Below the pieces are notes generated by a model. That model was not told where the DNA came from and made no database searches. It saw nothing but the letters and a program-made list of their open reading frames with translations. This document shows positions 14,721 to 58,295 of a stretch of 64,000 nucleotides of DNA, one piece after another. This stretch comes from Romanomermis culicivorax. Lineage: Eukaryota; Nematoda; Enoplea; Mermithida; Mermithidae. The first letter of the stretch is position 1. Every line of letters begins with the position of its first letter. The stretch spans positions 124,001 to 188,000 of the forward strand of contig CAWUHX010000211.1 of NCBI GenBank assembly GCA_963922205.1. Direction: 5' to 3'. Position numbers and translations under genes: made by a program.

Positions 14721-17556
14721 AGTAGTAAGGTCGAATGGTTAAGGATATCCCTATCTTTTGTGTATGACCTATGTCATTTTTGGCCGATTTATAATTCATG
14801 TAAGCACATACGATCGATTTTTTGTTGATTTATACGTCATATGGTTAAGCATGCAGGTTCTGGAGTTACCGTAATAGTAGAAGTACGGTAATATTTGGAT
14901 TATGGTAATAGTGGAATTAGGGTAAAAATCGTGTTACTGTAGGTGGAGAAGGAAAATTGATGATGAACAAGAAATGGAAAAAGGAAAACTAAAATGAACA
15001 AAAAATGGAAAAGTGTTAGGCTTCTGTGGGTTGAAGATGATGTTGTTGTATTTATATTTGAGTCGGGGGTTGATGAGTTAGGCAGGATTGGGATCCCGGG
15101 GTCCGTCCTTAATGTATGTATTTCCCAGGCCCACGCTTACCCGATTAACTTAATTAATAGTACTTAAACCCAACACTAATAATCCAACATATCAAGGAAA
15201 AGATACTTCCTTAATTGTCTCCCGAAATAAGATAAATACAAGAAAGAAAACCCTTCTTCAATTTTACTTTACACAATAAGAAACACTTACTTACAAACGC
15301 GGCTGGGCGAAAGTATAAACAATTCACTCCCACACACTGGGGAGAAAACAAACAAAGACGAGCGTGCAGGGAGGCAGCAAGAAGGACCGCGTACTGAGAT
15401 GCACTACAGTAAGACTGCTGTTGATGGTCTGCGTTGCTCGCTCCACATGGTACTTGCGTGCCTCATGCGCAGATTGACAAAAAATGACAAAATTGGCGCA
15501 AACACACCACAACAATGTAACCAACCTTTGGGTTCAGACAAAGGAAGTTGCAACAGTTCTGACCACAGGCTAACAACAACAATAAACTAAAAACTCTCTC
15601 ACACGTTTCACCAGATACTCGCCAGTACTTCCCCAAACCTCAGGCAGAACACCTTGGCACATACCTCAGGAGATCCTACCCAAGTCTCCAATCCTAATCT
15701 TATAAAATCCTCCACTACGCTCACAAAACAAAACAATTACCAGTTCAATTTGTATCGGGTATGCAAAGGGCAATGCCAACACAATAACAAAAATAATAAA
15801 AAGTAATTGGCAGTTGGCGGCGAGGCTCCATAAAACCACAATATTTTTTGAATGAATAAAAAATACCAAAAACACGCGAAACAGTGGCCACATATCTCTA
15901 TGTAAATTTTATCATTCTTTTTCACCACTTTTTGCCATGTCCTATCGCCTGCACATCGACGCCAGAAGCTGAACATGTGCACCTGTGGCAACCCCGACAT
16001 CCCTCAGCCCTCAAAACCGACCAACAGGAGGTGAAAACCTTTCTGCAGCCTGAGTCTCATACTGAGGCCCCAACTGCATAACAGTTTTCCCCTCCGAAAA
16101 CAAATTTTTGGGGCTACCCCCCTCCAAGATGTGATCCAGCCCCTACCAGGTCCTTCAGGTGACGGCGACTTTGATCAATCCATTCGGCAGGGCACTCCTT
16201 TTCAGGCTACCCATAGGATCACAAATGTAGTTTGGCCTGGACTTTGACATTGATCTGTGCCTAGATCTGGGGCGCCACCATTCCTCTTCTCCCATGTACT
16301 GGTTTTTACAGCGTAGAGGTTGAGCTACCACAGGTGCGCTTCCTCTATGGTCAGCCACTCGCCATGTTGCCCCGTCCAATACAAATCTACACAATAAAAA
16401 ATATTTTCTATAAAATAATTCAATTATCTGATTACGAAATAATTTTATAAATGCAAATAAAAATTTTTTCACGTCTTCATCTTTTTCAGGCCCTGAAATT
16501 AATGAGAAAAAATACGAGGGCTATGTACACGCCCGAAATAAGATTAACGGAAATAACAAATTTTGCCGGGCAACTTTTGGGCACCAGAAACGAGAAAAAT
16601 TTAAAAATTTAAAGCAACAATAAAATGAGATAATATATTTTTTTGTATTTTGTGTTTTATTTGTGTTTTTGTATTTTTGTATTTTTTGAAATAAAATTTG
16701 TACGAAATAACGAATTTTGGTCCAAAAATTGTGCGGCTGTATAAAATTATTGTTGCCCGCTGCCACCATAACCACTGTATTGGAAGCTACCTCCATGAGG
16801 ATAGGGACCACCCCAAGTTCCATGACCCCTGAGGAATCCCCCAAAAACTCCTTGGGGTTGGGTCACACGAGGGGCCCCAGCCATTGCCTGACCTCTATAT
16901 GGTTGCGGATTGATCATCCTGAAGGGTCTTCCTTGACCCTGTCCCTGACCCCGGCCTCAGCCATATCCCCCTCCAGTTCCCCTCTGGTATGAGCCCTGAG
17001 TGGAACTTACAGAAGATACTCCAGAAGCTGAGGCACTGGACCTTCCTTGACTTTGTTGATTTCCATAGGGCAATTTGAATACTCCAGGCTGTTGCCGACC
17101 CTGCAACTCCTAGTCCTGGACATATCTCTAGGTTGCCTTTCTGTTAAAATGTGAATCTTGAAGGGTTGACCCTTCTCATCCTCAGCTTTCTGGAACTTAC
17201 CAGAAAACCTCTGAACCTTCCAGGGTGGAGCCATGGCTGTCCCACCATTGGCCAATGTCGGGGTAGGTGTAACCATCCCAACCAGGGCTCAACAAAAATG
17301 GCCGGGTTCGGTAACCGTGGATTGGCTACAACACCAATCCTACGGGTGGAATGTTGTATGTTGCCATACAACAAAAGAAATAAAAAGAAAGCATGTATAA
17401 AAATGATTTTCTCCATGAGCAAAGGAAGTCTCTCAAAAATTTGCACCCCCAGACCCCCTTCGACAAAAGGGTGCCACCTGCAGGCCTAAAACTGATCAGA
17501 GGTCCCATTCCTGAATGATCATTTTAGTCAGCAGTTATTGGTCAGATTGGCCAGTC
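14721..17556 (+). repeat. Polinton left terminal inverted repeat, split by an insertion
   Basis: Positions 14721-15013 and 17374-17556 together match the reverse complement of the right repeat, about 476 bp. The outer part carries AAGGATATCC and GTTACCGTAATAGTAG; the inner part carries GGGTGCCACCTGCAGG. Inside the left end, the inner segment is repeated in degenerate form at about 17572-17640 and 17716-17870, so this end also has local tandem copies. Confidence 0.88.
15014..17373 (-). mobile_element. 2.36-kb element inserted in the Polinton left repeat (TG...CA ends)
   Basis: The right Polinton repeat reads through GGAAAAGAAATAAAAAG without a break. In the left repeat this is split after GGAAAAG and resumes at AAAGAAATAA, giving a 4-bp (AAAG) or 5-bp (AAAAG) duplication. 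Read on the minus strand, the insert starts TGTTGTATGG and ends CCTAACA, the TG...CA pattern of LTR elements, but I see no matching LTR at both ends. Minus-strand coding traces include a stretch around 17276-17007 (WKVQRFSGKFQKAEDEKG) and a Gly-rich tail around 16990-16740 (PYPHGGSFQYSGYGGSGQQ) with a stop inside. The product is not identified. Confidence 0.7.
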
Positions 17557-19646
17557 AGCAGTTATTGATCCCCCCACCTGGACCCCCTTCAACAAAAGGG
17601 TGCCACCTGCAGGCATAAATATGGTTGGAGGTCAATTTTGTTTTATTGTAAAATAATCATTTAGTCCAACTACAAAAATAAAAAGGGAAAAATATTAAAG
17701 TAAGCAAAACTGGAAAAACTAAAAGAAAGCATCTGTAAAAACGACTCCCTCCACCCATTGAGGAAGTCTTCCAAAAAAAGCGTCCTCGGGCTCCAAAATG
17801 AGAGGTGCGCTGTCTGCAAGTTAACAGAGTAGCTAATTGGAAGCCCTACATTTCTGAACAATCATCCAAATTAGAATGGTCTTTTATGTCAGTAATGCTC
17901 AATTCTACGAGTAAAACCTCTCAAAGTCTATATGCAATGAAACATCGTTTCTACCGGTTCATACTTATAAGGTCGTGAAGAATGACCAAAAAGATCCTTC
18001 ATGAAAAAATGACCAGAAAGAGACTGATATAAAAACGTGTAGAAAATTGGAGACAGTTTAGATGCAAAAAAAGAACTGTCCTCTGTGTAGAAACTGTAAT
18101 TGATACTACAAAAATAGATGGAGAAAAGAAAGAAAGAAAGAGAACACAGTGGGCATATACACAAAAAAACTGTACCAGAGGTTAAAGGTCAACTAAAACA
18201 TTGATGCTAGACATACATACACAATAGTCTCTGTATAGAAAACTGATTCATCTTATAATGCATACTGATTTATACAGGTAAATGTCTGATTTTGTATACT
18301 GGCTGTTTTTTAGAACAAACATAAAGAGGTTAGACCACTGAAGCCCATTTAGCTCATAAAATCAATCAGAAATGCTAGAAAAGGTCAAAGGTTGTATAAA
18401 AGCTGGTAGCAAGAGGAACTTTACCAAAACAATTAAGGTGGTGCTTATTTTTGATAGTTTTCTGGGATAACCTAGGAGCTTCAAAGAAAAAGGGGAAGAA
18501 AAACTGAAAAGATTCAACCAAAAAGGCAGAAAAAACTGTAAAAGATTTAATGAGGAAAAAGAAGTATAAATAGAAAAAACAGAAGAAAAAAAATAATTTT
18601 TTGGTTCTTGTTCGACGACAATAATGACAACAACTATGACAAAAATGGAGCCATTATTCATAGCATTCATTACTGCGCTGAAGGCCGCTTACCAGGTGTA
18701 TGGTAGGTTGATAATATGAATATATTTTAAATTCAAATTAATACAGATACAATTTGAATATTGAAAAATATTATTTTTCTTATTATTAATTTAGCACTGT
18801 TTTTAATGATGATCGACATTGATGTGCTGGCAACTGTATTTTGGGAGGAGGCGTCAACTGACTTCAAAAATTGATGGAAAAGCCAGCGTGCGGAGCTGTA
18901 TCCAGCTTGGATGAAACTCTTTTGGGGTTCCATGAAATGCCTATGCCGGATGCTTGAAAACCCCACACTGGATGATGAGTAATTAGCCTTGCACCTGTGG
19001 AACATCCTCCCCCCAGTGTGAGGGCCCAATGGAAGGGGGCTGACCAGAAATACATTGACCCCCATGTAGCTTTAGCACTGCCACATTTCTAGTAAGTTTC
19101 GATGTTATACTTAAAGATATGACTTAGTTCAATAGACTTATATCTAATGAGAGTAAAAATTGTTATGACATTTTACTGTAATATTTTGAGGTAAGACATG
19201 AACAGGGTAAATTGTACTACAAACCAACTAGGATATAGATTTTTACTATTTAGTTACAAAAAGACAGGTGTTAAGGCATAGTAGAAGAAATAGTAGTAGA
19301 TTTGCATGGTAAATAATTGGTATAGCAAAAAGATTGTTAACTTTCCTACAACATAACAAAGAACAGATGTTAATTATGGTATAATAAATTTTGTACTGTA
19401 TGTATGTATGTATGCATGTAGGTAAGTAGGTAAATCATTGAATCATTGTTTCTAGAATATTCTAGAAGGTTTCAATTATTTTGGGAAATCTTTGTGCAAA
19501 AAGAAAGGTTATGAAGATAAAAGAATAGTTTATCTGCGTAAATATACATTTGACAATGTGAGGAAAATATATAGTAAGAAAGAAAAACCAAGAAATAAAA
19601 TAGAGTGTTAATAATAGACTTTGCACCTACTAGTAAACAGTTAAAA

Positions 19647-19690
<44 letters not shown>

Positions 19691-20376
19691 TATATTAGAA
19701 CAAAATTTTTTGTTTTAATTAAAATGAATTTTAAAATTTTAGTGGTTACAAATAGAAACGGCATGCGCAGTGGTTGTCATTGTATAATTGTATATATTAA
19801 TTTACGTGAGTAAAAATTTCTACAAAAGTTTTTAAAAACTTAATGTTTTTTATTTTTAGGTATTATTTGTATATATTTTTATTTTTGTTGTTGTTGTATA
19901 ATATGTTTAATAAAATAAAATTAAATTAAACACAATAAAATTTTTCTTTATTGCAATCTATATTAGTGGTTGTTACTTTAGAGTTCTAGTGTGTCATCTG
20001 ATGGAAAATGAAAAGAGTTACTGCAGTAGAAAAACATGTCATTATTATAATAAAATAATTAGAGGTGTATGAATGAATGAAAGATCAAGTGAGATGTAGA
20101 GACCAGGTGCAAAAATAATTGCATGAAAAGTAGAGTGTTGCTCATATTGAGATTTGTTGTTTTTGTAGGTCTTAGGATAAAGAAGGATAAAAAGGTGTGA
20201 GATAATTACCAAGAGTACTGTAGAAAGGAAGGAAGGAAAGAAAGTCATTTATAATTAAAGATAGGTTGAAAGACTAGTTTTAAATAATAGGTAATGAGAA
20301 GGATAGTATAAACAACAAAACTATTGTTTTTTATTATAAAAAATTAGAATGTACATAATATAGATATATAGCTCAT
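17557..20376. other. Polinton interior without a recognisable gene
   Basis: Contents are degenerate copies of the inner terminal repeat (to about 17870), AT-rich sequence, a GC-richer patch at about 18820-19080 of unknown origin and an (AT)n run at 19649-19687. This is where a Polinton could keep a protease or cargo gene. No protease motif or signal sequence was found. Small open frames here have low-complexity, Lys/Phe-rich products. Confidence 0.5.
19649..19687. repeat. (AT)n microsatellite
   Basis: A pure dinucleotide run of about 39 bp in the AT-rich Polinton interior. Confidence 0.9.
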
Positions 20377-21762
20377 TTAAATACTATAATCCGTAAAAGT
20401 TTCACAATTTTTGTCACTCATTACAAGAGAGTCAAAGTCTGCATATATAAGTGCTTCAATACCTCTGTCAGGTATATCCTCACCAAAATTCATTTGTAAA
20501 CTGGTGGTTCTTTCACATACAAGTTCCCAAAAATTACCATCCATACCCCAAGCAGTCAAATCAAAAACAAAAAGTGTGTTATGTGTTGTAAAAGAATTTC
20601 CAGTAACTTTGTTACCCTTGTTATCTGTACCAATCCCTACACCTTCAACTAATTGTATAGAGGGACGCAAATATTTGTTTTCTTTAAAATTTAAAATATA
20701 AGGAGTAGCAGGCAGTATTGTAGTACTGCTAGTTATTTTAATCTCGTTTAAGCCAAAATGTTTGAAATTGAAGGGGCTCTGATAATAATCACCCCTAGCA
20801 GCAGCCTCATCAACAAGAGCCACAACAAGTTGACGAAGTGAGGAACCTGTGAATATCAAGTTTAGAGGTGCTGATCAATGACTAGCTGTTATGTATAGAC
20901 TTGTAACATGACAGTGTCGAATAGGGTATTTTGCAGCCATATTTTGTAACATAGATTCAATAGCTAGATTAATATTATCTAAAACTTCTACTTTTTAATA
21001 AATAAAGACATGCTTTTAACTTCAATCTTATAAGCTTCATTGTCAGTAGATATAAATTTCTGCAAACAGAAATCATCTCTATGTCTGTATAAATCAATTT
21101 TCAAGGTACATTGATTCAATAGAAAGCATTCTTGCATAAATAGATCGGCCATTAACTCAATGACTGTACTGTTTTCGAACATTCATACACTTTCCACAGT
21201 AGGTTTGTTTTTCTTTATATCAAGAACATCGTCATTTTCAAAAGTATGACCAGCAGCTGTGGCATGCGTCAATTTAGCATCGTGACCATAGTTTAATTCC
21301 ATTTCCAAATAAGATCTGTAAGCATATCTATCACCACTGAAGTGTTAAAATGTTAAAATTTAAAAAAACATGTCAACATACATTTAATTATAAAACTTAC
21401 TAGTCAGATATTAATTTTCCATTTAAATAAATTTTGATCTGTTTAAAAAATGTTTTGCCAATCAGATTAATTGATGCTACAACATTACTGCTGAGATTGT
21501 TGTTGGCATCCGATGTTAAATTGCGAGCAGTACCATTAGCTTTTGTAATTCCAAAAGTGAAACATATAAAATTTTTTGACAAATCCAGCATATAGGAATC
21601 AGGTGAAATAACAAACTCCTACAGTCCCTCATTAGTACAAGGATTTCAGAGTTGAATTTCTGACCAAAAATTTCTACAAATAGCTACCTGTGTTAGAGGT
21701 ATGGTAAATAAATCTAGCTCAGTTTTACTACTAGGAGACAAAGCATCAGTAAATTTACTCAT
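20377..21762 (-). pseudogene. Polinton major capsid protein (double jelly-roll), broken, with one intron
   Basis: The start ATGAGTAAATTT is at 21762, and the reading frame ends in FTDYSI at 20377. Segments match the Polinton major capsid family, whose homologues are often listed as F54H12.2-like: an N-terminal KANGTARNL...KIYLNGKLIS block, RYAYRSYLEMELNYG, a DLYRHRDDF block, FNFKHFGLNEI and the terminal GIEALIYADFDSL. The block after GKLIS is separated from its continuation by a 64-nt GTAAGT...TTCAG intron (21400-21337) whose removal restores the frame. In-frame stops lie near 21650-21620 and at about 20877; frame changes lie near 21182. Its role would be the virion shell. Confidence 0.88.
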
Positions 21763-22284
21763 TTTGAATAGATATCCTTGAAACTGACTATCCTAGATGG
21801 AGTCTTTTCTAAGATTGAGAAATAACATTTTAGATGTTTACGTGTATGTTGTTTTTGATGTTGATGATGATGATGACCATTATTCAACTTTTTATTGCTC
21901 TTTATACGTACCATAGAATTTATATGTTTATGCTTCCCTAGACCTTTTCCTTTCTCAATGCCCTCACCCACCTCGTGTAATAAGTTGCCTGCTGCGTTTT
22001 GTCCATGCTCAGAAACACAGAGAACGACCTTCTACTACATCACCTGCAATTTTAGAACCTGCGGTAAGTGCATGTTTTCCAGCAGACTTTAACAAAGACA
22101 TAGCTAGATGCCAAAAACTCTTGAAAAAATTACCCACTCCTGCTCCTTGATGTCTATAATAAAATGGGTATGCTGCTCTGAAACGTTTTAAGGTGCCACC
22201 TAGCTGGAACTGATTATTTTGAATGCTGTGTTGATAAATATTGATCCAATAATCAACAGTTTCAGGAACAAATACTGTATGCAT
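21759..22284 (-). pseudogene. Small Polinton virion protein, pVI/core-like, frameshifted
   Basis: The N-terminal part runs from the ATG at 22284 through PFYYRHQGAGVGNFFKSFW and KSAGKHALTAGSKIAGDVVE. This G-x-G-x-G/aromatic hairpin followed by an Ala/Lys/Gly helix is a pattern I recall from the small Polinton protein compared with adenovirus pVI or core proteins. Near 22010 the frame shifts by one and continues as AGNLLHEVGEGIEKGKG, then a basic His-rich tail (HHHHQH). Its stop TGA overlaps the start ATG of the capsid gene (ATGA at 21762-21759). Membrane disruption or core packing is a family-level inference only. Confidence 0.65.
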
Positions 22285-22445
22285 ATCTTGCTTCGTAAAT
22301 AAAAATGAACAAGTAAATAAAAAAATAAATAAATTAAGAGCACTTGCGAAAATTCAACCTGAGGACAACCTGTCTAAATGCAAATGAATGAATAAATGTT
22401 AGTTAAAATTTGATAGCATTATTATTAAAGGAATGAAGGAGTACG

Positions 22446-23537
22446 TCACGGGAAATGTAATTCAACTTTAACATGCCGAAATTGGAATGGTATAAATTTT
22501 TTCATAGTGCTTTTTATATTAATTTTGACTACTGTAATTTCTTTTAACTGAATGAGTATATAATGTAGTGTTTCATATAATCAACTCACAATATCTTTGT
22601 ATTTTCCTTGCACATTTACTATATGTAATAGTGGTGCTAATGTATTTCCAACAATATGATTTTCAATAACATTACAATAAACATAAAAACTCTGTAAATC
22701 GTTTCAATTTGGTGGTTGAATTCCTAACATACATAGATGTTTATTTCCTGGATCAGCAAGGAAAATAGATTTGGATGGTGGAATATGCATGTTAGAATTT
22801 TGGGGTTTTTCTCCAACTGTATATAGGTTAATATTCACACTTCTATTCAAAAAATTTTCAGCAGTTGCATCAGAAGCAGTATTGGTAATGCTAAAACATA
22901 GAATTTCCATAAAACAGTTGCTTAGATTGATTCTCTGCAAACTTGTGTACCACTTTTTATTTTCAGATTAACCAAACATCGATCATGTTCATCATATGAT
23001 TTCAATGTCAGTTCTTGCAATTGCTGCTCCAATTTTTGCATTCAATTCGTCAATTAACTCAGATACCTTAAAGTAATGTTTTTCAAAAACTATAAATTTA
23101 ATTTCTTTAACTTTATTTCCAACACCATCCATAATTAATTTTATTACATTATCACCACCATGGTTGGACATTGTAGCCCAACTATTGGGGTATATTATTT
23201 CGCTTAACCCTACCTCCCAACTACCATCTTGCTTCAGATGGTAGGGTAGATGGGCTGAAAAATCTGCAGGTATGTTTCCATCTTTGCTATTACTAGGTAA
23301 AGTGATATAAAATTGATCATCAAAGGCTGTCAATATTATAATGTTAGCTGTTGTAGGTATTGTCTCCAACGAGTTAGATGATGGTAATAGTCCTGGCAGG
23401 GGGCTAGGTAATAAATACCCTACACAAGCCCACAATAAGACAACCCACAACTGTGTAATATCATTGTGGAGAGATAAATTTATTATAGCTGTAATGACTA
23501 CAATATATGTTAGTATGACCTGACTAAAGAACACCAC
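22446..23537 (-). pseudogene. Polinton penton (minor capsid) protein, broken
   Basis: The conserved order of the family is visible: QFYITLPSNSKDG near the N-terminus, GSWEVGLSEIIYPNSW, then YVYCNVIENHIVGNTLAPLL, and FIPFQFRHVKVELHF at the C-terminus before TGA at 22446. Family pentons usually start very near FYxTLPSN, so the hydrophobic leader seen from 23537 may not be native and the start is uncertain. Stops and frame changes occur near 22990, 22940, 22700 and 22568. In the virion this would be the vertex protein. Confidence 0.85.
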
Positions 23538-23673
23538 TTCGTTTCAAGGTAAACCTCCAAAAAAAATCCCAAACACTGACGCCAGATGATTCCGGAAGGA
23601 GTGCTATTACTACTATCCATTTCAAAATAAAAAATCTTTATTTAACAATTAGATAATTAATTATAAATTCTAT

Positions 23674-23830
23674 AAGAAGGCGGAGCTAGTAAAGTCACCA
23701 ATAAAATTATACAAAAATATATAAAGAAGGCAGAGCTAGTAAAGTAACCATTAAAATTATACAAAAATATAAAGAAGGCAGAGGTAGTAAAGTAATAAAA
23801 TTATACAAAAATACATGAAGAACGCAGAGT
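23674..23830. repeat. Three tandem units of 45-50 bp between penton and integrase
   Basis: AAGAAGGC(G/A)GAGCTAGT begins at 23674, 23724 and 23772, with a degenerate start near 23817. Each unit is followed by AATAAAATTATACAAAAAT, so each carries an AATAAA hexamer in the plus direction. Confidence 0.85.
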
Positions 23831-24225
23831 TAACTTTTACAAATGCATACATAATATTTCACAATGGACCTTTTACAGAAAATTTACAATGAAAAAACTT
23901 ACAAACTGACTTATCATTGTAAGCAGAATTTGTATTACTAAAACTTTTAAACATTTTATACATAGGAGAATGTCACACTTTATAATACAAAAAATACAAG
24001 GTATATATACTGCAAACTCTGCTATAAAAATTTTGTAGGCCTTTCTTATTTGTGTGTCTTACTGTAGCATTCTTCTTAATATAGTTTATAAAAGCAGGAA
24101 TAATTGGTCATAAACCATATGAATCGAAATAATATACAGAGTTATCATTATCAAAATACATATCTGTCCAATGACTTCCTTTTTAAAAAGATGTATCAGT
24201 GTTTGCATTTAAAGCCGCAGGTCTT

Positions 24226-25065
24226 TTAACTATCTCCAGTAATGTATCCCAAGCAAAAACCCCTAAAAAAATTCTTGATAAAATTGCATCTTGTTGAACA
24301 TAGTATGATTATTGAAAGTTGTTCATCGTAGTCATTGTCATCATTTTGTATCTCTTTTTCTAAAATCCAACTGTTGAATTTTTCAGGATAACCCCACCAC
24401 TCCAGAGGTACTCTATTCTGACCATCTGGAAACCTCTTAGCTTTCGAAATCTTTTCAATTTTGTATTCTTTGATACTAGGGTTAAAATCAATTTTCTGTA
24501 GCTCTTTTTCATAAAAACGTCCTTCTATATCCTCGCCTTCCAAATCTTGAATTCTATAAAGTATATGGTTTCTAGTCTTCACAATATGTTTTACTCTAAA
24601 TACTTCTACACTCCATTAAGGTAAATAACCTTTGTTGAACACACCTCTATGCTTACTAATTTGTACATAATCCTCTATATCAATCTTAGATTTTCTAGTG
24701 TATAAGCTTTCAGGGTAAAGTCTTTGCCACATAATTTTTTCATTAGAATAATTCACATTAACAGGTTTTTCATTGATTGATCTATGAATAGAATGATTAT
24801 AGTTTGGAACAACTGTAGGTAAAATATCAATCCATTTATAAGTGGTAAGCTCTGTAAAATATTTAAATAATTTAGTTTTCAAGGTTCTTTTAAACGGTTC
24901 CACAATTGAACATTTAATGTCTTCATTCTGGGAAGTAAAAAATATATATTATTACCTTTAAATAATTGTTGGAAATCTTTGTTGAAAAATTCTTGTCCTT
25001 TATCTCTGCGCACTCTCCAAGGGATTTGACCTCTTTTTAAAACATTTTGAAAATAATTGCGAGTA
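24226..25065 (-). pseudogene. Polinton retrovirus-like integrase, C-terminal part with chromodomain
   Basis: Visible are the second catalytic aspartate block (RRDKGQEFFNKDFQ), the catalytic glutamate block (DIKCSIVEPFKRTLK), the YNHSIHRSIN motif and, further on, a chromodomain (FPDGQNRVPLEWWGYPEKFN). The DNA between the Asp and Glu blocks has an extra T in a T-run near 24940 that breaks the frame, and a TAA follows KGYLP near 24615. The first catalytic aspartate and the zinc-binding N-terminus were not found. Integrase would insert the element, and the chromodomain may steer it to modified histones. The copy is not functional. Confidence 0.85.
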
Positions 25066-25255
25066 CATTTTGTATTGTTCTTCAGGTGCTAATGTATTAT
25101 CCTTCAAAATGTGCTCTTATTTTTTACAATACATGTCAACTTGTTTAGCTATACCTGTCTTTTGGTTTGCACTCAAAGAAGAAGAAGCATGAGAATTAGT
25201 CAGCTTATTTAGAACCTCATGAAGAATAAGAGCAAATTTACTTGGGAATTTTATT

Positions 25256-25606
25256 CTATAATAATTTCTCTGTAACAAAAGTTGCTAATGTAGATAAAAA
25301 AGCTGGTAATACTAAAGGTAAAATGCTCTACCTATTTGAACAATTCATGCACGTTTATTAAGTAAATCATTTTTCTTGTTTTTTTCCTGTCTTGTAGCTA
25401 AAGCCTTAAGCAATAATTTATGTTTTGCCAATTTATTTTTTAACTTAGAATTAATTGGAATATTACCCTTCAATATATTTAAACAGATTTCATATAAACA
25501 ACAGATCAGATCAGGGGAGAATGTTGAAAAAAACAGGTCTTTGAATACAGTTTGAATTTTTCAACACATTGAGCTTGTGAATATGTTTCTTCAATCTAGA
25601 AGCCAT
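25256..25606 (-). pseudogene. Small conserved Polinton protein (LNILKGNIP motif), frameshifted
   Basis: It starts MASRLKKHIHKLNVLKNSN at 25606. After a one-base frame change near 25520 it continues with CLYEICLNILKGNIPINSK and a Lys-rich helix (NKLAKHKLLLKALATRQEK), then a hydrophobic tail ending at TAG (25256). From memory, an LNxLKGNxPL block followed by KxKLxxxK is a hallmark of a short Polinton protein of unknown function. A stop near 25340 separates the helix from the tail. Confidence 0.6.
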
Positions 25607-25700
25607 ACAAAACAGACCATACATTATAGAAAAATATTACAATAATGACCAAATGCTAAATGAACATTGAAACAATTAATGTATTACATTAAGACAGTAA

Positions 25701-26007
25701 TTAGGCTTCATTTTGTATAATAACATTCAAGTCTTCATGTCTAGAAAAAGGACACAAATTATTTATATTCATAAAAAACAATTTATGATTTGTATCTAGC
25801 TTAAAAAAAATGTTCTACAAAAATAGAGCAAAGTTCGATCATATCCAATTCCATTAGTAATAATTTAGCAAAACACCAAAATTGTGTAACTTTTTTACAT
25901 CCTATAGGTAAACTAACTTCAGGACGTAGATGATTGCACACTTTAGCTATGTCTTTGTAAGCAGTCTTGGCTTTGGGTGAGAAAGGAGTCCAAAACAAAT
26001 CAGCCAT
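25701..26007 (-). pseudogene. Hypothetical Polinton protein, frameshifted at a T-run
   Basis: It starts MADLFWTPFSPKAKTAYKDI at 26007 and stays open to a poly-T near 25800, where the frame shifts. It resumes with NNLCPFSRHEDLNVIIQNEA and a TAA at 25701. The product is about 100 residues with two Cys-containing hydrophobic helices. I cannot name a function; its place between ATPase and integrase fits an accessory Polinton gene. Confidence 0.5.
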
Positions 26008-26039
26008 CTCTTGTCTCTGTTTGTTGGTTAGTAATTTAC

Positions 26040-26722
26040 TTCAAATAAAAAAATATTATAATTTAATAAGTAGATAGGTGGAATAGATATAAAATTTTTA
26101 CCTTTTACTTTATTTTGCACCATTCTGACAAAAACTTCAAATGGGGGGGGAGGGGGGGGCATTGTAATTGACACAAAACAAGCAAGCTAATCATAGAAAA
26201 AATGACCAACCTCTTCAAACTAAACTGATGTATTGACTAAACTGATGTATTGTAAAATATTTTTTTCTGACTACATAATAAATCTACAGTATGAATATAT
26301 CATAAATTAGTACCCTTGATGTACAAGTTTTGGAATTTATTGGTACGGCTACAACAAGACAATAGAGTAGGATGGAAAATATATATTTTGAAACACGCTT
26401 ATAATTGCATAAATTGACCATCATTCTGAGGACATTGTAAAACTTTTTCTATAAAATGTAGTAAGGGTGTTACATGCAATTTATAATTTTCCCATAAATA
26501 TTTCCGAGCTGTACCATTATTTGTATTTGGTATCATAGAATCCATAACATTTACAGTTTCCCATTTTCATAAATTTCAAAAGGATATTGTAACCATACAA
26601 TAAAAACAGATATAAAAAGAATTATGGTAAGACTATTAAAAAAAGTGTATTTACTGCATAACATATCAATAAATAATAAGATCCGACTAACTTTTTAAAA
26701 GTTTTTTTGTAAAAATGATAAA
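26040..26722. other. Polinton intergenic segment with a G-run
   Basis: AT-rich sequence without a supported gene. A G-rich patch of about 20 bases (26142-26160) interrupts it. Confidence 0.45.
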
Positions 26723-27330
26723 TTATTTAGCTGTATATATAAGCATGTGATAATTGTCAGGAAATATATTGGCTCTAAGTTGATATTTTTCAGGACATGT
26801 CTGTGTAAGATCTACTAATAAATAACCATACGGTATACTTGTAGCATCCTCATACATCTCTATAAAATAATTTGAATTGGATGAGAATCTGGTGAGCCAG
26901 TGTGCAAACTTGTAATCTATCGCTAGGGTTTTTTAAAAGAATCAAATATTTAGCGTTTATTCTACTTGTATGCATTCTATCAAAAAATGTGTTCTGAACT
27001 ATATGTATAATTGATAGATTCCAGTGATCTGAGCCTTTAATAAAAAGCTGAGTTAAACATTGATCATTCTTCATCTCTTGCATCATATCATCCATAATTA
27101 ATAAATTAAGTGTGTCTTTACTTTTTTGTAGTTCATCCAAGTCAGGTGAACCTTGAATAAAATCTACATAAGAACATTTTTGAACTAATTCATTGTAAGC
27201 TTCTTGCCATTCAGAATAACACCAATAAAATTTTATAGGAGCAGGATGAATCATTTCTTTTGCAAAAATTACTAATTTTTTAACAAATTGCATTTTTCCT
27301 GATTTTATCAGGGCAGAAACTATGCAATTA
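26723..27330 (-). pseudogene. Polinton FtsK/HerA-type genome packaging ATPase, Walker A degraded
   Basis: The Walker B block LNLLIMDDMMQEM is clear, followed by LFIKGSDHWNLSIIHIVQN, the family's (F/I)TKGSHHxNLSVxxIVQN motif, and LILLKNPSDRLQV. The C-terminal ATSIPYGYLLVDL ends at TAA (26723). Upstream, the Walker A position reads VSALIKSGKM; the family has a GPxxSGKT-type loop, so the first Gly and the Thr are gone. A one-base frame change lies near 26866. Packaging ATPases pump DNA into preformed capsids; this one could not hydrolyse ATP normally. Confidence 0.85.
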
Positions 27331-27881
27331 AATGGAAGTTTTTTTATATATAAAACTCTTCAACATCTGACATCTCTCTCTCTCTCTCTCACACACACAA
27401 CAAAAACCAGCCACTTTTTACTTGGACAATTTTAAAGTGATTTTATTTTAAATGGTTTGTTATTTATAATTACCCAAAATTACAATAGAATAAAATGGGA
27501 TACAAGCATAAAGCATAAAAGTAAATGATTAAATAAAATAGAATAGTATTACTTTAACACGTAATAATAATAGTCATATGCAAAAATAAGATACACGCAA
27601 ATGATATATGAGGGTATATATGAAGCAAGCATTGATCAATTAACTAATTAGGCATACAATAATATAATGCGTGTAAATGAAACTTCACAATTTTTGATTA
27701 ATAAACTTGCCTACTATCTTGATAACAACACCATCATCAAAATCCTAATGATTACCTTCATCAATAAAATGAGCTCCAGTATCCTTAACAATCTTACAAC
27801 TAGTACTTGTAAGTGGAATACAATGAAATATATCAATCATCTATTTAAAGGCAAGAAGACAATAATAACCTTTAACCTTGC
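27331..27881. other. Polinton intergenic segment with (CT)n/(CA)n run
   Basis: A short CTCTCTCT/CACACACA run at about 27371-27400 and AT-rich sequence. The small open frames here have no recognisable features. Confidence 0.4.
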
Positions 27882-28409
27882 CTATAACATACTCAAAACA
27901 GTCAATAATAACCCCCATAAATGATTGACTGCTGGTATAATTGCATTATTATATAAGGATTGACAACCCAGACACTGATGATCCTCAATAATTCCTACAT
28001 CTTTTGCACAACAACAATCAAAACAATACCCCATAAATATGTTTATTATAGCCAGTTCAGCACTTATAATTATAAACAATTCTTCATCTTTTACTACATC
28101 CAGCAAACTCCTATCCGACGCTGAATTGTAGTCTGGATCGTTGAGGTAGTCAATGAAAAGATTGTTAACAAACATCATTTGAGTGCTAACTGTCTTTTGA
28201 TCTACAGTAGCATCATCTGCTTCTCCAGCGATTTTCGTAGCATTGCTATCTTCTCCAGTGGTTTTCATACCATCATTGCCTTCCCCCACAATTTTTGCCG
28301 CATTGTCCCCTTCTTCTCCAATGATTTTTATACCATTGCCACCTTTTCCAGTGATTTTTGTTGCTGAAGCATCAGCGTCACCATTATTAATTGTTGTGCA
28401 TTCCATCAT
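27882..28409 (-). CDS. Hypothetical Polinton protein with a short tandem repeat and a Cys/His motif
   Basis: An uninterrupted 175-residue frame. Residues about 16-66 form about five units of roughly 11 residues with consensus xKIxGExxDxA, encoded at about 28200-28365 by direct DNA repeats of about 33 bp. The C-terminal half contains CFDCCCAKDVGIIEDHQCLG. A CxxC...HxCL arrangement occurs, as I recall, in an uncharacterised Polinton gene and may bind zinc. Function unknown. It is one of the few Polinton frames without a stop, though the family's full length is unclear. Confidence 0.55.
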   Translation of the reverse strand: MMECTTINNGDADASATKITGKGGNGIKIIGEEGDNAAKIVGEGNDGMKTTGEDSNATKIAGEADDATVDQKTVSTQMMFVNNLFIDYLNDPDYNSASDRSLLDVVKDEELFIIISAELAIINIFMGYCFDCCCAKDVGIIEDHQCLGCQSLYNNAIIPAVNHLWGLLLTVLSML

Positions 28410-28640
28410 TGTTGTTGTTGTTGGTTGGTGTTTTACTGCTAAAGCATTGTACTTGTTTGAAATACCTGGTGCTATTTGATGTATTGAGTTGGTCCAGCAC
28501 CAAAATTGCTAAAGAAAAACATTATAAGCATTGAAAGAAAGAAAGAAAGAAAAACCATTTTAACCTTAAAAATTGTTAAAGAAAGAAAGAAACAGAGAAA
28601 AAAAGAAAGAAAGAAAGAAAGAAAGAAAGAAAAATTCATA

Positions 28641-28952
28641 TCATCTCACTTCTTTAGATAAACTCCATTTCCTTTGATTAAACACGTTGGTAAATGGTAC
28701 TGTAACCCTGTTGCTCTTGACCAACATCTTATAGCCCAAGTTGATGCGGCATTGACCTCCATGGGAAAATGTATTTTTGATAATGTTGACATTGGGACCT
28801 AATATACCGTATTGAGGTAGAATGAGTTTGAACCCTCAACCATATGCCTCCTTTGTTTTACGGTGGATGTTACAAAAATAAATCAACATGTATTCACCCT
28901 CAACCGCTACAAATAAAGCCATGTTTTTGTCTAATGTAAACTGGTGTTCCAT
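28641..28952 (-). pseudogene. Unidentified small Polinton protein with one internal stop
   Basis: It starts MEHQFTLDKNMALF at 28952 and reads in one frame to TGA at 28641, with a single internal TGA after TKEAYG. The first half has a strand-like pattern, ALFVAVEGEYMLIYFCNIH followed by basic residues. This faintly resembles single-strand DNA-binding PC4-type proteins, but the match is too weak to name. It is the gene nearest the divergent polymerase. Confidence is modest that it is a true gene. Confidence 0.4.
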
Positions 28953-29240
28953 TTTTAAAAATTTGGGAGTTGAATACAGGAAATATATTAAAGAGAGAGG
29001 GAGAGAGAGAGAGAGAAACAAGTAGTTTTTGTAACAGCAGAAATGAGAAATGTATAAAGTGATCAAAATTTTAGAGAGTAAAAGGCGGGTTATAAGCATA
29101 ATAAATATCCTGAACATATATACTACAGTAGTCTGTTATTTTGATGGCTATGTAAGAGGGGGGGCGGGGTTATAAGCAAAAGAAATTTTCCAGCTATATA
29201 TCCTACAGTTACTCTTTGTTCTGTCATATACATATAGAAC

Positions 29241-29400
29241 CTAGAGAAAATAAATTTGTTTGTGTGTTATAGTAATCTTGGAGGTCAAAGCTAGAGAAAA
29301 TAATTGTGTTTATATGTTATAGTAATCTTCAAGGTCAAAGCTAGAGGAAATAATTGTGTTTGTGTATTATGGTAATCTTCGAGGTCAAAGCTAGAGAAAT
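29241..29400. repeat. Three exact-period 50-bp tandem repeats upstream of polymerase B
   Basis: CTAGAG(A/G)AAATAATTGTGT-like units start at 29241, 29291 and 29341, with a fourth start at 29391, and each ends (A/G)AGGTCAAAG. A second, looser pair (GAAATGATATAGCCA and GAAATGATATGGCCA) follows at about 29396 and 29600. They lie between the divergently oriented minus-strand genes and polymerase B, where a bidirectional promoter or origin would be expected. Confidence 0.85.
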
Positions 29401-29812
29401 GATATAGCCAGTTGCACACGAGTTATAATGGTCTTTAAAGATTTTCTCCATAAAAAGAAAAGATAGTGCAACAGAGTTATAAACAAATATTACAGTTCTT
29501 TTATAGTATTAAGAATCAAAACAAAAATACTAGAGTTCTACTGTAAAACAGGTGTTTCAACTGATTTTAACTGGTTATATTCTAGTAAAATAAGCTAAAG
29601 AAATGATATGGCCACGTGTTCATGAGTTATAGAGGTCTTTAAGGCTTTCCCATCATGAAAAAGAAAACTACTATGACAGGGTCATAAACATTGATTAAAA
29701 CTCTACCATAGAATTAATAGTTTTTGCTGATTTATAAAACATTTTTCGTTATTACTGTAGTGTTTTCTTGTTTTTTCTAGTTTCAGTTTTGATAATCTTC
29801 ATAATTAAACTT

Positions 29813-32800
29813 ATTTAGGAGGATATCACTTTAGACAAGGAGGACATACCTATGCAAAATTTAGAAGATATTACTTCTGATGAAGAGGAAGTGGTTGTGG
29901 ATGAGGATTTAGATAATATTACCTAGGAGGAAGAAGAAGAAGAAGAGGAAGAAGAAGAAGTGGAAGAAGAAGAGGAAAAAACACTCAATAATAATATTTC
30001 AGATGAACAAGGAACTATTTTAGATTATGATGATGAAAATGATCAGTACAAAAGTTATACACCACACAGTTCAGATGAGGAAGAAATTTACGAACCAGTT
30101 CGAATTGGCAGTGGGGGTATAAAAAACTCATCTTTTGTTGCCCATGATTTTTTCAAATTAGGGCAACCCAGTACCATGGATATTAGACATTTTAATACAG
30201 TAGGTCGCAAGTATTCTTTGAATTTTCCCAATACTGAATGTATGGATGATGTAATGCCCAACTTGCGCCAACATTTCAGGGCATAGTTGAGCAAATTTCA
30301 GTGAATGTCCACCATATTGCCCTTATGGGGTTTTCCTTTGACCATCTGGATTTGACAAAAGGTTGTGTTTTGATACCTTTTAGACCAAAACATGCTTTAA
30401 CCGGTGATTTTATGGTAAACACACTAAATGCCATTCTTCAATCAAACAAGCAAATTCAAATTGATAGTCACCAAGCTACAATTCCTCTGTTGTTGTAACA
30501 CCACCTGAGGGTAGCGGTAAGCTATTTAAATTACTTATTTACTTACTCACTTGGTTGCCTTTTAACATTTTTTTAAAAACTTTTCTTTTCATTTTTCTTT
30601 GCTTATTTTCTTTTTTAAAATAAGGTATTCACAATGCTCATCAATATTCAAAGCATAATGATTTCCTGAAAGACAAGCACTGCGTTATTCAAATCAACAA
30701 CATTGATGATTTATGTTTTGCTCGAGCTCTAGGTATTGCTAGAGCTTATGTTCATAAAAAAATCCAAATGCAGTGTACAAGTGGGAAAGTATATGAAAAT
30801 CTGATAAGACACATCTACTGCAAACAAAGGTTGCTAAAGAATTCATGGCCCTGGCAGGTTTAGCTAATCATCAAGGGTCTTGCTGATTTCATCAATGGGA
30901 AAAACTGCAAACTGTTCTACTACACGATTATCAAATCAAAATTTTTAGCAAAGATTGGTTTAAGGATTTAATATTTAAAGGTTAGTGTGTTCTTACTTTT
31001 CTGTTATTGTGTGCACATTTAGAGTTTCAAGGACCTGAAGCAATACATGTTTCTAATATTTACCACCACAATAACCATTACTCAGTCATTACAAAGATGC
31101 CTGGTTTTTTTGACCATGGTTACTTTTATCCTTATTTTGATTTAGCCTACAATAACAAAGTGAAACATAGATGCAAAAACTTTTGTCCTTTGTGTTACAA
31201 TACACCCCCATGTAATCAATTTAATGCTCCAAAAGGCAAAGATTGTCACCAATATTTTAAAAAAGACGAGTGTTTTGCTTGACACAAGTTTGTTTCTACT
31301 CAAAAAGGACAATCAAAATGTCAAAAAACTGGGGTATCTATTTGTGACCGCTTCAAAGTGTGCGAGGAAAGTGATACACTGGTTTGGCGAGCACATTCTA
31401 AGCCTCATAATTGTGGTTATTTTGAATGCAAAACATGCAATAAAAGCTTACCGAGAAAAGGTATTAGAATAGCTATTATTTTTATCTTTGTTTAAATTTT
31501 TAAATTTTAGGACATATATGTTTTATGCATCCTGTTGGTAGCGAGCAAGTTGAGAAGGAAGATGTATTTGAAACAAATAACAAGGGTGTTAATGATGACA
31601 ATACTTGTCTAGTTGCTGATGAAACAGGAATTAATGATAAGTGTCCAATTGATCAAAAATTTTTTTTTTTTTATTTTGAGACTATGCAGGAAAAAGTTTT
31701 ACGACAAACTGAACTAGGCAATGTATTCAAACATGAACCAAATTTATGCATTGTTCATACTGAAAGTGATCAGTGTCGTCAAAGCGAAGGAGATTTTCGT
31801 TGCAATACTTGTGATCAATGTGAGCCCATATTCATATGATCTACATGTCTGAATGATTTCTGCAAGTAAATTTTTGGACAAGATATGAAAAACATTACTG
31901 CCATAGCACATAATTCTCGAGGAATCGATGGACAGTTTATAATGCAATTTTTGTACCATAATGGTCATCATAAACTGAATATCATTAATGGGTAAATTAG
32001 CGACTTGTTTTGTAGTTTTTCATTTTCATTTACTTATTCATTTTTTTATTCATACAGGATTAGAATTGATGTGTATCAAGGTATGATCGATAAAAATTAT
32101 TGATTCTTTGAACTTTCTTCCAATGCCTCTAGCCGCTCTACCGAAAACATTTGGGATAAGTGAAATATGTAAAGGATATTTTCCACATTTCTTTAATAGA
32201 AAGGAAAATTATGGATATATTGGACCATATTGTTCACTGGACATGTATGGTTACAATGCTATGAAACCTGCAGCTTGTGCCACATTTTCGGAGTGGTATA
32301 ATGGAAAGCTTGAAGCAGTAAGTTTGTTAAAAGTATAAAAGTTTTGCTCTTAGAAGTGTATCCTTGTTTAGGAGTATCAGTTTAACTTTGACAAGGAATT
32401 ACTCAATTACTGTCGTAATGATGTGCAGGTTTTATGACAGTGTTCTATGAAATTTAGGGATTTTTTTATGGAGGAAACAGATGCTGATCTTTTTGAAAAA
32501 TCAATAACTATCACCGGCGCTTCTAATCTTGTTTTCTGATGTTAATTTTTTAAACCAAACAGTATTGGAGTAATACCTTACAAAGGTTATTGTGAAGAAG
32601 AAAGACAGTCTGTTATCACCTCAAAATGGTTAAAAGTATCTCATAAAAACGAAAAACTGTTTATTCAACATAAAATTAATGGTGGTGAAGTTCAAATTGG
32701 TGAATACAAGGTTGATGGTTTATCAGGTCATTTTGTTAAAATTTTAAAAATTTTCAATACCTACTTGTTTGTTTGTTTGTTTGTTAAAGGAACAACTGTT

Positions 32801-34240
32801 TATGAATTTTATGGTTGTTTTCGGCATGGTTGTCTGAAAAGTATGAAAAATAGCCATAAATTAACAGCTGATAAGGATACAAAAACAAGCGATGCATATG
32901 AGCGCACATTTAATCTTGCTATGGAACTTCAATCCGTTGGTTATAACATAGTTAAAATGTGGAAAAGTGAACTGTTACAACAAATTCATTCAAATCCCGA
33001 AGTGGAAACATTTTTGCTACAGTTGAAATACTTGAACCTATAAACCCTCGAGAAGGTAAAAATTTAAAATATATTCTTTTTCATTCTGTCAAAAGTTTTG
33101 TTGTTGTTTTTAGCTTTCTTTGGTGGTCACACTAATGTGGTAAAATTATATCACAAAATTAAGTACAATGAAGATGGAAACTTGCCAAAAAATCAATTAT
33201 GTGGATGTGTGCAGTTTATACCCATTCATCAACAAATATGGGAAATACCCCACAAGTCATCCAAAAACCCTGACTGGAGGCTTTGAAGAGGTCAGCTCAA
33301 CTTCTCAACCTTATGAGGGTTCAATCAAGTGTATGGTTTTACCACCTCATAAACTCTTACACCCTGTTTTACCATATCAACATGGTGGTAAATTGCTCTT
33401 CCCTTTATGCAAAACTTGCACCCATGATTCACAAAAGACCACATGCGACCACAATGACCAAGATTGAGCATTAGATGGTACATGGGTTACCATAGAATTA
33501 TACGATGCCTTAGAGAATGGATATAAGGTATATTGTTACTGTAATAATTTGCCTTTTGGTTCTAAAGTTTGGCATTATGATAACATTGAACAATATCATC
33601 CAACTAGTAACCCTGATGGTGGTTTATTCACTCAGTACATCAACACTTTTATGAAAATGCAGCTAGTAAGTTTTATATTTTTTGAAATGTAGTCAATTCT
33701 GATCACTGGTTTTTATACGAAAGTAAAGGCTACCTTGCTAGAGCTCAGAATGATGAGCTAAAAGGTGAATATGAAATGGAGGTCTACAATCCAGAGAATA
33801 TTTCATTAGACCCCTCAAAAATTTCGAAAAATCCTGGAAAGAGACTTTTGGCCAAACTAATGTTAAATTCATTTTGGGGGAAGATGGTTTTGCAAAGTTT
33901 TTGTATTTATTTAGTTATTATTTTATGTTTTTTAGTTTGGTTAGTAAAACAATATGGATAAGACTATTATCCACAATGCCCCTAAAGAATATTTTGAACT
34001 CATAATGAATGTTGTGAATGTTATTAAAAATGTTAGACTAATCAATAAGCAAATGGTGTCAATGAATTTTTGTCAGCATGATGATTTTGCCAAGGTTATG
34101 TGGAATACTAACTCCGTTATAGCAGCCTATATGACAGCTCAGGCTCAACTGAAGTTATATTCTTACATTCAATGATTAAAAAGTTGAGTATTGTATTTTG
34201 ATATGGATAGTATTATTTACTTGTCAACAATTGACAAGCT
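29813..34240 (+). pseudogene. Polinton protein-primed DNA polymerase B, intron-split, 3'-truncated
   Basis: A first ATG lies at 29857 in a strongly acidic N-terminal region with a poly-Glu run. Family landmarks follow in order: a zinc-like CPLCYNTPPC block near 31190, the Exo I block reading FFYFETMQE (31670), KGYFPHFFNRKENYGYIGP (32180), YCRNDVQVL (32410), motif A YVDVCSLYPF (33195), motif B KLMLNSFWGK (33860) and motif C YFDMDSIIYL (34200). Eight GT-AG introns fit in phase: 30517-30624, 30981-31022, 31461-31510, 31992-32057, 32318-32371, 32727-32789, 33056-33113 and 33887-33935. In-frame stops (for example 31280, 32437) and frame changes are present. The gene breaks off shortly after motif C, about 130 bp before the right terminal repeat, so the thumb region is missing. 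Confidence 0.9.
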
Positions 34241-34374
34241 GGTCTTTTTTTCTTCTATAAAAGACCTTTTTGGTCATTTTCACGCAGTCAATTTTATGCA
34301 CACGCACCCGCAAGAATAATGTTTCATCATGTATAGACTTTTTCGAGATTTTACTTATAGAACAGATCATCACT

Positions 34375-34895
34375 GACCAATCTGACCAATCCGACAATTA
34401 CTGACTGGAACGATTGTTCAGGAATGGGACCTCCCACCATATTCACACCTGCAGGTGGCGCCCTTTTGTCAAAGGGGGTCTGGGGGTGCAAATTTTTGAA
34501 ACACTTCCTCTTCCCACAGAGGAAGTCGTTTTTATACATGCTTTCTTTTTATTTCTTTTCCATTTTTTTGTTCATTTTAGTTTTCGTTTTTCCATTTTTT
34601 GTTTGTCATCAATTTTCTTTCTCCACCTACAGTAACATGACTATTACCCTAATTATACTATTACCATAATCCAAATATTACCATAATTCTACTACTACGC
34701 TAACTGTAGGTGGAGATCTTCTGGAGTTCTCCACCTACAGTTACCCCGTTTTACCATATTTCTACTATTACGGTAACTCCAGAAGCTGCATGCTTAACCA
34801 TACAACCTATAAATCGACAAAAAATGACAAATTATAGGTCATACACAAAAGGGATATCCTTAACCATACGACCTATAGGGTCTGGCCTTACTACT
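34375..34895 (-). repeat. Polinton right terminal inverted repeat
   Basis: It ends CCTTACTACT at 34895 and mirrors the left repeat. Relative to it, about 85 bp are extra at about 34700-34785, including the perfect inverted pair ACTGTAGGTGGAG and CTCCACCTACAGT separated by 11 bp. It also has about 13 extra bases just before the terminal CTTACTACT. Confidence 0.88.
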
Positions 34896-35559
34896 AAGGT
34901 GGTTTATTACTGAAAAAAATTAAAAAAGTCCTTCAAACCATAGAAGGCTCATCTTTCCAATACGAAGAACAAAAATTCTCTCTGATCCTCTGTGTTGGCT
35001 GACCACAGCAGAATTTCTGCTGTGCATGTACCGTCACGACCGAATTTGTATGACGTTCTGCACAATATTCCTGATATAGGAAACAACCAAAAGGACAACA
35101 TATATAAAATGTATCGAACGTTGTTGGTTTGGATGAACTCGGATCTAGCAGCCATTGTTTGGTTGCAATCATGAAAACTAAAGATGATAGTCCACGCGTA
35201 TTATTTTGGTATAATTGTGTTGGTGATTCATATATATGAGATAACAATCGAAAAGTTTTCTGAATGATTCGTATTGCGTCGCTGGGAATAACTTGAGTTT
35301 GACTTTTTTACATAAACAACGTGCACGTAGTTACTAACATTGAGTGCCGGCAAATTGTAGCTATGAATCCGGATACACTGTAAGAAAATAACAATGAAAA
35401 TGAGGTTTTTCGCTATGTGGGGTCGCAGTGTTTTTTTGTGCACGGGCATTTGTGCCAATTGGCACAAGAGGCCAAAAAAATTTGTGTCAATGGCACACAA
35501 AAAATTTCTCCACTAGAAACATACCGAAAAATGCGGAAAAGTTTTTGGCCAAAAGTTTG
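34896..35559. other. Flank to the right of the Polinton
   Basis: No certain gene. At 34995-35030, GCTGACC..CAGCAGAATTTCT..TGTGCATGTA matches the right end of the element at 545-943. A minus-strand open stretch at 34933-35247 encodes a Cys-rich segment (FYICCPFGCFLYQEYC), but I found no exon boundaries to support it. Confidence 0.4.
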
Positions 35560-37456: not shown

Positions 37457-37463
37457 ATGTGAC

Positions 37464-44602: not shown

Positions 44603-58295
<13,693 letters not shown>

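What the first reader, a model, noticed from the sequence alone, without database searches (positions are those of the whole stretch)
29813..34240. Polinton polymerase B gene cut by about eight tiny spliceosomal introns
Each gap between conserved polymerase blocks has a GT donor and an AG acceptor, and removing it keeps the family alignment in phase. Lengths are 108, 42, 50, 66, 54, 63, 58 and 49 nt. Polinton genes are generally intronless in the cases I know best, although nematode Mavericks can carry introns. A virus-like element whose polymerase needs host splicing implies nuclear transcription and long residence in this lineage.
Basis: partly seen in the sequence, partly recalled or inferred. 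Interest (0 to 1): 0.9.

Follow-up and report, generated by a model that had tools for sequence, protein, structure and literature searches.

The report
Spliced polymerase gene in dead Polinton
A worn-out, virus-like transposon in an animal genome carries a DNA polymerase gene cut by eight or nine tiny introns that look like those of a host gene nearby, although related elements carry the same gene uncut.

Summary
A decayed Polinton/Maverick (about 14720-34896, with TIRs) carries polB on the + strand. Against 50 family proteins seven are insertions near the expected size; I4 fits loosely. They are T-rich (0.535 v 0.316; 0 of 5000 random blocks). A ninth insert at 33666 was missed. Introns of a host DDX3-type gene 20 kb away are 56-148 nt with like edges. 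Three DNA-level relatives lack introns. ATPase, integrase and protease pieces show no insert; penton and MCP are unclear. This copy is dead: 11 in-frame stops at well-aligned codons, frameshifts, lost C-terminus, CpG-type decay largely confined to the element. Best reading: spliceosomal introns, once removed by the host spliceosome. RNA, sister copies and host identity could not be tested. I recall introns in nematode Polintons but could not read the key paper, so: new variant of a known kind.

The parts
14720..34896 (.). Polinton/Maverick-type element, about 20.2 kb, including a 2.36 kb later insertion
   Evidence: TIR ends AGTAGTAAGG at 14721 and 34895; TIR arms; gene set; flanked by a 4-bp AGGT only, no clean 6-bp TSD
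14720..15012 (.). left TIR, outer part
15013..17372 (.). later insertion splitting the left TIR; about 5 bp of TIR duplicated at its edges
   Evidence: the two TIR alignments overlap at 34555-34559
17373..17555 (.). left TIR, inner part
34372..34896 (.). right TIR
20422..21723 (-). major capsid protein remains (name recalled)
   Evidence: tblastn with L006 MCP, E 2.9e-16
22012..22140 (-). pVI-like minor capsid protein, fragment (name recalled)
   Evidence: tblastn with L005 homologue, E 0.009
22452..23321 (-). penton / minor capsid protein remains (name recalled)
   Evidence: tblastn with L006, E 1.2e-20
23937..24308 (-). cysteine-protease-like protein remains (name recalled)
   Evidence: tblastn with L006, E 6e-17
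24346..25058 (-). integrase with weak C-terminal chromodomain
   Evidence: tblastn with L005, E 3e-39 for 24346-24945; PF00385 E 0.017, below its cut-off
26759..27335 (-). packaging ATPase (A32-like)
   Evidence: tblastn with L006, E 1.4e-24; Pox_A32 E 0.0067, below its cut-off
30250..34229 (+). DNA polymerase B gene of the protein-primed type (type recalled), decayed, C-terminus missing
30517..30624 (+). intron I1, 108 nt
30981..31022 (+). intron I2, 42 nt
31461..31510 (+). intron I3, 50 nt
31992..32057 (+). intron I4, 66 nt; size fits loosely
   Evidence: spans
32318..32371 (+). intron I5, 54 nt, best supported (41 of 45 kept relatives within 4 codons)
32727..32789 (+). intron I6, 63 nt, weak donor
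33056..33113 (+). intron I7, 58 nt
33887..33935 (+). intron I8, 49 nt (homology edge at 33884)
53788..54625 (+). part of a host DDX3-type helicase gene with introns of 88, 56, 148 and 56 nt, used as yardstick

Best explanation
The gaps are spliceosomal introns in the polymerase gene of an integrated Polinton. While the family was active, polB would have been transcribed by host RNA polymerase in the nucleus and its eight or nine tiny introns removed by the host spliceosome. Shown: family homology, GT..AG inserts mostly of the expected size, T-rich composition like introns of a host gene, intronless relatives, decay of this copy. Inferred: transcription, splicing, and that the introns were gained in this lineage rather than lost elsewhere. 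The present copy can no longer give a working polymerase.
For: Exact edges and lengths; insert sizes against up to 45 of 50 relatives and P0014 edges for I8; T 0.535 in the eight inserts v 0.316 in the rest of the gene, 0 of 5000 random exonic blocks; GT..AG chance 6e-7 to 1.3e-4 at middle and loose tolerance; four introns of a host DDX3-type gene, 56-148 nt, with GTAAG/GTAAAT donors, TTGCAG, TTTCAG, TTTTTAG, TTTAAAG acceptors and T 0.43-0.46 v host exons 0.269; relatives with uninterrupted polB DNA, L005 and L006, and L007 with frameshifts but no insert-sized excess.
Against: No RNA evidence. The copy is decayed, so some edges are blurred: I6 donor, I8 donor, ninth insert out of phase, I4 size loose (median 13.3 v 22.0 codons). 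Named inserts explain 440 of 630 nt of excess against P0014; much of the rest lies in linker segments, for instance about 93 nt in the segment after I3 (from spans), where I saw no intron but ran no formal test. Only one host gene served as yardstick.
Confidence: 0.9

Rival explanations
1. The gaps are chance insertions gathered by a decaying pseudogene that happen to have GT and AG near their ends.
For: The copy is clearly decayed (11 in-frame stops at codons aligned to 10 or more relatives; several frameshifts). A vertebrate Maverick study notes that its gene-prediction software reports large insertions in decayed copies as introns (PMC8097293, passages).
Against: Eight of eight have GT..AG, where chance gives 0.3-21% per site depending on edge tolerance; T fraction far outside exonic blocks; seven of eight sizes lie at 42-66 nt, close to two of four introns of the host gene (56 and 56; the others are 88 and 148).
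Confidence: 0.04
2. The gaps are in-frame coding insertions (protein linkers) peculiar to this family, not introns.
For: I1, I2, I4, I5 and I6 are multiples of three; I6 has no stop in the exon's frame.
Against: I3, I7 and I8 are not multiples of three and the frame changes across them; I1, I2, I4 and I5 carry stops in the exon's own frame; the kept relatives lack at least half of the residues in all cases for seven gaps and in 27 of 36 for I3.
Confidence: 0.03
3. The introns are old and shared by a broad group of animal Polintons, and the intronless relatives lost them.
For: Not excluded: DNA was seen for only three relatives, and the gene models of P0008, P0013, P0014 and P0015 may be spliced.
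Against: Long uninterrupted ORFs: L006 1262 aa, L005 1156 aa, P0002 1389 aa on a 5235-base contig.
Confidence: 0.15
4. Introner-like element: one mobile sequence made all the introns.
For: Best pairwise similarity among the nine inserts is slightly high (14 of 300 shuffles reach it).
Against: Mean pairwise similarity is near shuffle level (45 of 300 reach it).
Confidence: 0.04

Closest known systems
Polinton/Maverick elements of vertebrates (PMC8097293; passages read)
   Same: TIR-bounded, core genes in two modules; the match of gene set to this element rests
   Different: Intact vertebrate copies are intronless by that paper; here polB has eight or nine introns
Animal Polintons with this polB: Holothuria leucospilota (P0014), Mya arenaria (P0015), beetles and ants; the label VSR-type pPolB is recalled
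   Same: Best polB match is P0014, then P0015; homology runs through most of the protein in the same order
   Different: No introns in the DNA-level relatives seen (L005, L006, L007); DNA of P0014 and P0015 not seen
Nematode Polintons (Jeong et al. 2023, PMC10748475; not held, only its title seen in reference lists)
   Same: By recall, nematode Polintons may carry introns and swapped pPolBs
   Different: Could not be compared; host here not identified
Ginger1 transposons (PMC2836005; passages read)
   Same: Elements with a Gypsy-integrase-like transposase whose genes can hold 1-4 introns, nearly all GT-AG
   Different: Cut-and-paste elements; polB and capsid genes are not part of them (recalled)

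Membership tests
Polinton/Maverick | family B polymerase of the organellar/viral type | tested here: met
   PF03175 and 50 relatives
Polinton/Maverick | retrovirus-like integrase | tested here: met
   tblastn E 3e-39 over about 200 aa against the L005 integrase-like ORF
Polinton/Maverick | packaging ATPase, protease, penton and major capsid genes | tested here: met
   tblastn E 1e-24, 6e-17, 1e-20, 3e-16 against L006 ORFs; gene names recalled
Polinton/Maverick | long terminal inverted repeats | tested here: met
Polinton/Maverick | 6-bp target-site duplication | tested here: inconclusive
   only AGGT (4 bp) repeated at the edges of an old copy
Spliceosomal introns | GT..AG ends at the protein-homology edges | tested here: met
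   eight of eight, I8 shifted by 3 nt, I4 edges loose; the ninth insert's acceptor is out of phase
Spliceosomal introns | absent from homologous coding sequence | tested here: met
   intronless DNA relatives
Spliceosomal introns | resemble introns of the host | tested here: met
   four introns of one host gene
Spliceosomal introns | branch point | not tested
   not looked for
Spliceosomal introns | removed from RNA | not testable with these tools
   no RNA data held

The most novel reading that the evidence does not exclude
Introns were gained in polB alone, leaving the structural and integration genes intronless, so that only the replicase of a virus-like element depended on host splicing: a nuclear gate that separates replication from capsid expression.
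Probability: 0.3. Interest if true: 0.65.

Novelty: new variant of a known kind. Interest (0 to 1): 0.5.

Why it matters
Polintons sit between transposons and viruses, and whether they spread as virions or live as nuclear transposons is debated. A polymerase gene that needs splicing speaks for a phase of nuclear, host-dependent expression, and the contrast between spliced polB and unspliced ATPase, integrase and protease can be tested in sister copies. The CpG-poor zone that largely follows the element also suggests targeted cytosine methylation in an otherwise CpG-normal genome.

Tried and rejected
IMG/VR scans with window pieces and a motif from the window's own residues gave no Polinton; L001/L002 look like phage contigs (ORF lists). 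A protein search with the 165-aa piece 32546-33040 found nothing. Profile scan A1 in viral contigs gave only L003/L004, matching query residues 799-907. PDB search with the piece 33686-33958 gave nothing. PHROGs gave weak DNA polymerase matches, E 3e-4 and 0.006. Host identity: an ORF at 6833-7360 looks like a nematode-type chemoreceptor to me (recalled), but Pfam gives no support. Romanomermis as host was considered because of GC 36% and methylation machinery, but its median intron is 405 bp (PMC3890508, passages). Introner origin: not supported. Papers not held. Searches for Polintons with introns in print; none of the listings or passages that I read reports a Polinton polB with several spliceosomal introns, but I opened only some of the listed papers and most subscription papers are not in that library. 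Nuclease-like segment: only PF18741 at E 0.02 on the window piece, below its cut-off, and not in the five intact relatives scanned in the same call.

Full report
What was checked. I found each one at exactly that length: 30517-30624, 30981-31022, 31461-31510, 31992-32057, 32318-32371, 32727-32789, 33056-33113 and 33887-33935.

The gene. Open pieces of the region match PF03175, DNA polymerase B of the organellar and viral kind (one piece above the family's cut-off, two weak). A protein search with one conserved piece found 13 relatives among 21 candidates, and a profile of eight of them found 38 proteins at E <= 1e-20, 50 distinct in all. The best overall match is a predicted polymerase of the sea cucumber Holothuria leucospilota (P0014), then one of the clam Mya arenaria (P0015). 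Homology runs from about 30.26 kb (P0008) to 34.23 kb, weakly to about 34.3 kb in P0005 and P0009. It stops soon after the YFDTDS-type motif, here YFDMDS; the last 130-139 residues of P0002, P0014 and P0015 are not in their alignments, and none of the 50 proteins matches elsewhere in the window.

Are the gaps insertions? For each gap I aligned the upstream and downstream pieces separately to all 50 relatives, and compared the window distance between the two alignment ends with the distance in the relative (repeated with counts and a corrected downstream frame for I4). Relatives were dropped if either flank scored under 28 or if the two positions were far out of range; one search gives the drops. 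Median excess in codons, found against expected, then relatives within 4 codons of kept relatives: I1 35.0 v 36.0 (19 of 19), I2 12.0 v 14.0 (22 of 25), I3 14.7 v 16.7 (24 of 36), I4 13.3 v 22.0 (19 of 42), I5 18.0 v 18.0 (41 of 45), I6 19.0 v 21.0 (38 of 42), I7 23.3 v 19.3 (16 of 17; P0014 exactly 19.3), I8 17.3 v 16.3 (14 of 17). Excess of at least half the insert was found in every kept relative for seven gaps and in 27 of 36 for I3. I4 is loose because its downstream flank is short and frameshifted; from the spans I work out about 61 nt (P0014) and 67 nt (P0015) against 66. A further insert begins with GTAAGT at 33666 (median excess 17.7 codons; 21 of 23 within 4 codons of a 58-nt insert). 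For I8, P0014 aligns up to 33883 and again from 33936, so the homology edge begins with AT and the listed GT lies 3 nt inside.

Are they introns? The eight inserts hold 53.5% T, against 31.6% in the rest of 30250-34229; none of 5000 sets of random exonic blocks of the same lengths reached that. The chance that at least seven of eight such sites show GT..AG is 1.3e-4 with very loose edges and 6e-7 with moderate ones. Three inserts (50, 58, 49 nt) are not multiples of three and the reading frame changes across them. I6 is the weakest: donor GTCATT and no stop in the exon's frame.

Host yardstick. About 20 kb to the right lies a host gene of the DDX3 helicase family (pieces matched to DDX3X structures). 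Four of its introns can be read from sequence and homology: 53788-53875 (88), 54021-54076 (56), 54225-54372 (148), 54570-54625 (56), with donors GTAAGC, GTAAGA, GTAAAT, GTAAAT, acceptors TTGCAG, TTTCAG, TTTTTAG, TTTAAAG, and T fractions 0.43-0.46 against 0.269 in its exons. So a gene of this genome uses introns close in size and make-up to those in polB. Other exons of the gene seem to lie kilobases apart, so not all host introns are tiny.

Relatives without introns. Of 20 loci found in a scan of bacterial and archaeal genome contigs, three, filed under bacterial MAGs, carry this polymerase over most of its length: L006 with one ORF of 1262 aa, L005 with one ORF of 1156 aa open at its 5' end, and L007 with the same span in three overlapping ORFs, frameshifted but with no insert-sized excess. 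The other 17 match only a short segment. P0002 is a 1389-aa protein from a 5235-base contig. Named gene models such as P0014 may themselves be spliced, which I could not check.

The element. TIRs lie at 14720-15012 plus 17373-17555 and at 34372-34896; the left one is split by a 2.36 kb insertion whose edges repeat about 5 bp of TIR. With the genes of L005 and L006 as queries, the minus strand shows MCP, a pVI-like piece, penton, protease, integrase and ATPase (gene names recalled except where Pfam gave a weak hit), the usual Polinton set. The edges carry only a 4-bp repeat, AGGT, so the 6-bp duplication is not shown. Comparing spans: ATPase 577 nt v 576 expected, integrase 692 v 690, protease 372 v 375, so no insert there; penton +63 (or +30 with L005) and MCP +90 nt are unclear; polB +511 to +630 nt, of which the named inserts explain 398-440. 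Much of the rest lies in linker segments, such as about 93 nt in the segment after I3.

State of the copy. In-frame stops fall at 11 codons aligned to 10 or more relatives, and at one more with fewer, and there are several frameshifts. CpG observed/expected is 0.34 in the element interior and 0.37 in the polB region, against 0.97 and 1.06 over the whole flanks, and 0.71-0.87 in L005-L007. The match to the element is not perfect: the outer left TIR (4 CpG) has 1.23, the right TIR 0.61, the inserted 2.36 kb 0.55, and the 1-kb bins from 35 to 41 kb 0.53-0.84. At columns where at least 60% of relatives have Arg, the window keeps Arg in 4 of 22, while 11 of 22 hold codons of the kind that CpG transitions make from CGN; the other residues are kept at 50-90%, except Gln at 4 of 13. 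The likeliest cause is cytosine methylation aimed at the element. Such targeting is reported for transposons in Trichinella (PMC4323106, passages) and for endogenous viruses including adintoviruses in Amoebidium (PMC11244446, passages).

How it most likely worked. Shown: a Polinton whose polB carries intron-like inserts that resemble introns of a host gene and are lacking in relatives. Inferred: nuclear transcription of polB, splicing by the host, intron gain in this lineage. The bolder reading is that the introns are confined to polB, so that the replicase alone needed splicing; this fits ATPase, integrase and protease but is open for penton and MCP.

Novelty. Intact vertebrate Mavericks are intronless (PMC8097293, passages), and a survey of protist elements predicted genes with an intron-blind tool on the ground that endogenous viruses lack introns, treating one species apart (PMC10120064, passages). 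I recall that nematode Polintons may have introns; the paper most likely to say so (PMC10748475) is not held. None of the listings or passages I read (and the papers opened) reports a Polinton polB with several spliceosomal introns. I therefore call it a new variant of a known kind, with moderate interest.

Noticed in passing
17373-34390: CpG depletion that largely follows the element: o/e 0.34-0.37 inside, about 1.0 over the whole flanks, with Arg codons worst hit; suggests element-targeted cytosine methylation. The outer TIRs are less depleted and 35-41 kb is also somewhat low, 0.53-0.84.
   Followed up: partly
15013-17372: 2.36 kb insertion inside the left TIR, with about 5 bp of TIR repeated at its edges and intermediate CpG o/e 0.55.
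   Followed up: partly
46008-58300: Host DDX3-type helicase gene on the + strand: four introns of 56-148 nt read in detail; other likely exons, judged by eye, lie kilobases apart.
   Followed up: partly
32792-33010: polB contains a nuclease-like segment (PF18741 E 0.02, below cut-off, and not in five intact relatives); 17 of 20 loci match the family only around here. I recall VSR-type nuclease inserts in animal pPolBs.
   Followed up: partly
L005, L006 (whole), L007: Polinton contigs filed under bacterial MAGs (Limnohabitans, Poribacteria); L006 carries polB, ATPase, integrase, penton, MCP and protease ORFs.
   Followed up: partly
35860-38450: Several copies of a G/C-run repeat family (CCCCCAACTTGGCCAACCCTGTACCCA and variants), direct and inverted, right of the element.
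   Followed up: no
10847-11359: Nearly perfect AAAAG array, about 103 copies.
   Followed up: no
3812-3883: tRNA-Tyr-like gene with the unusual anticodon ATA, minus strand.
   Followed up: no
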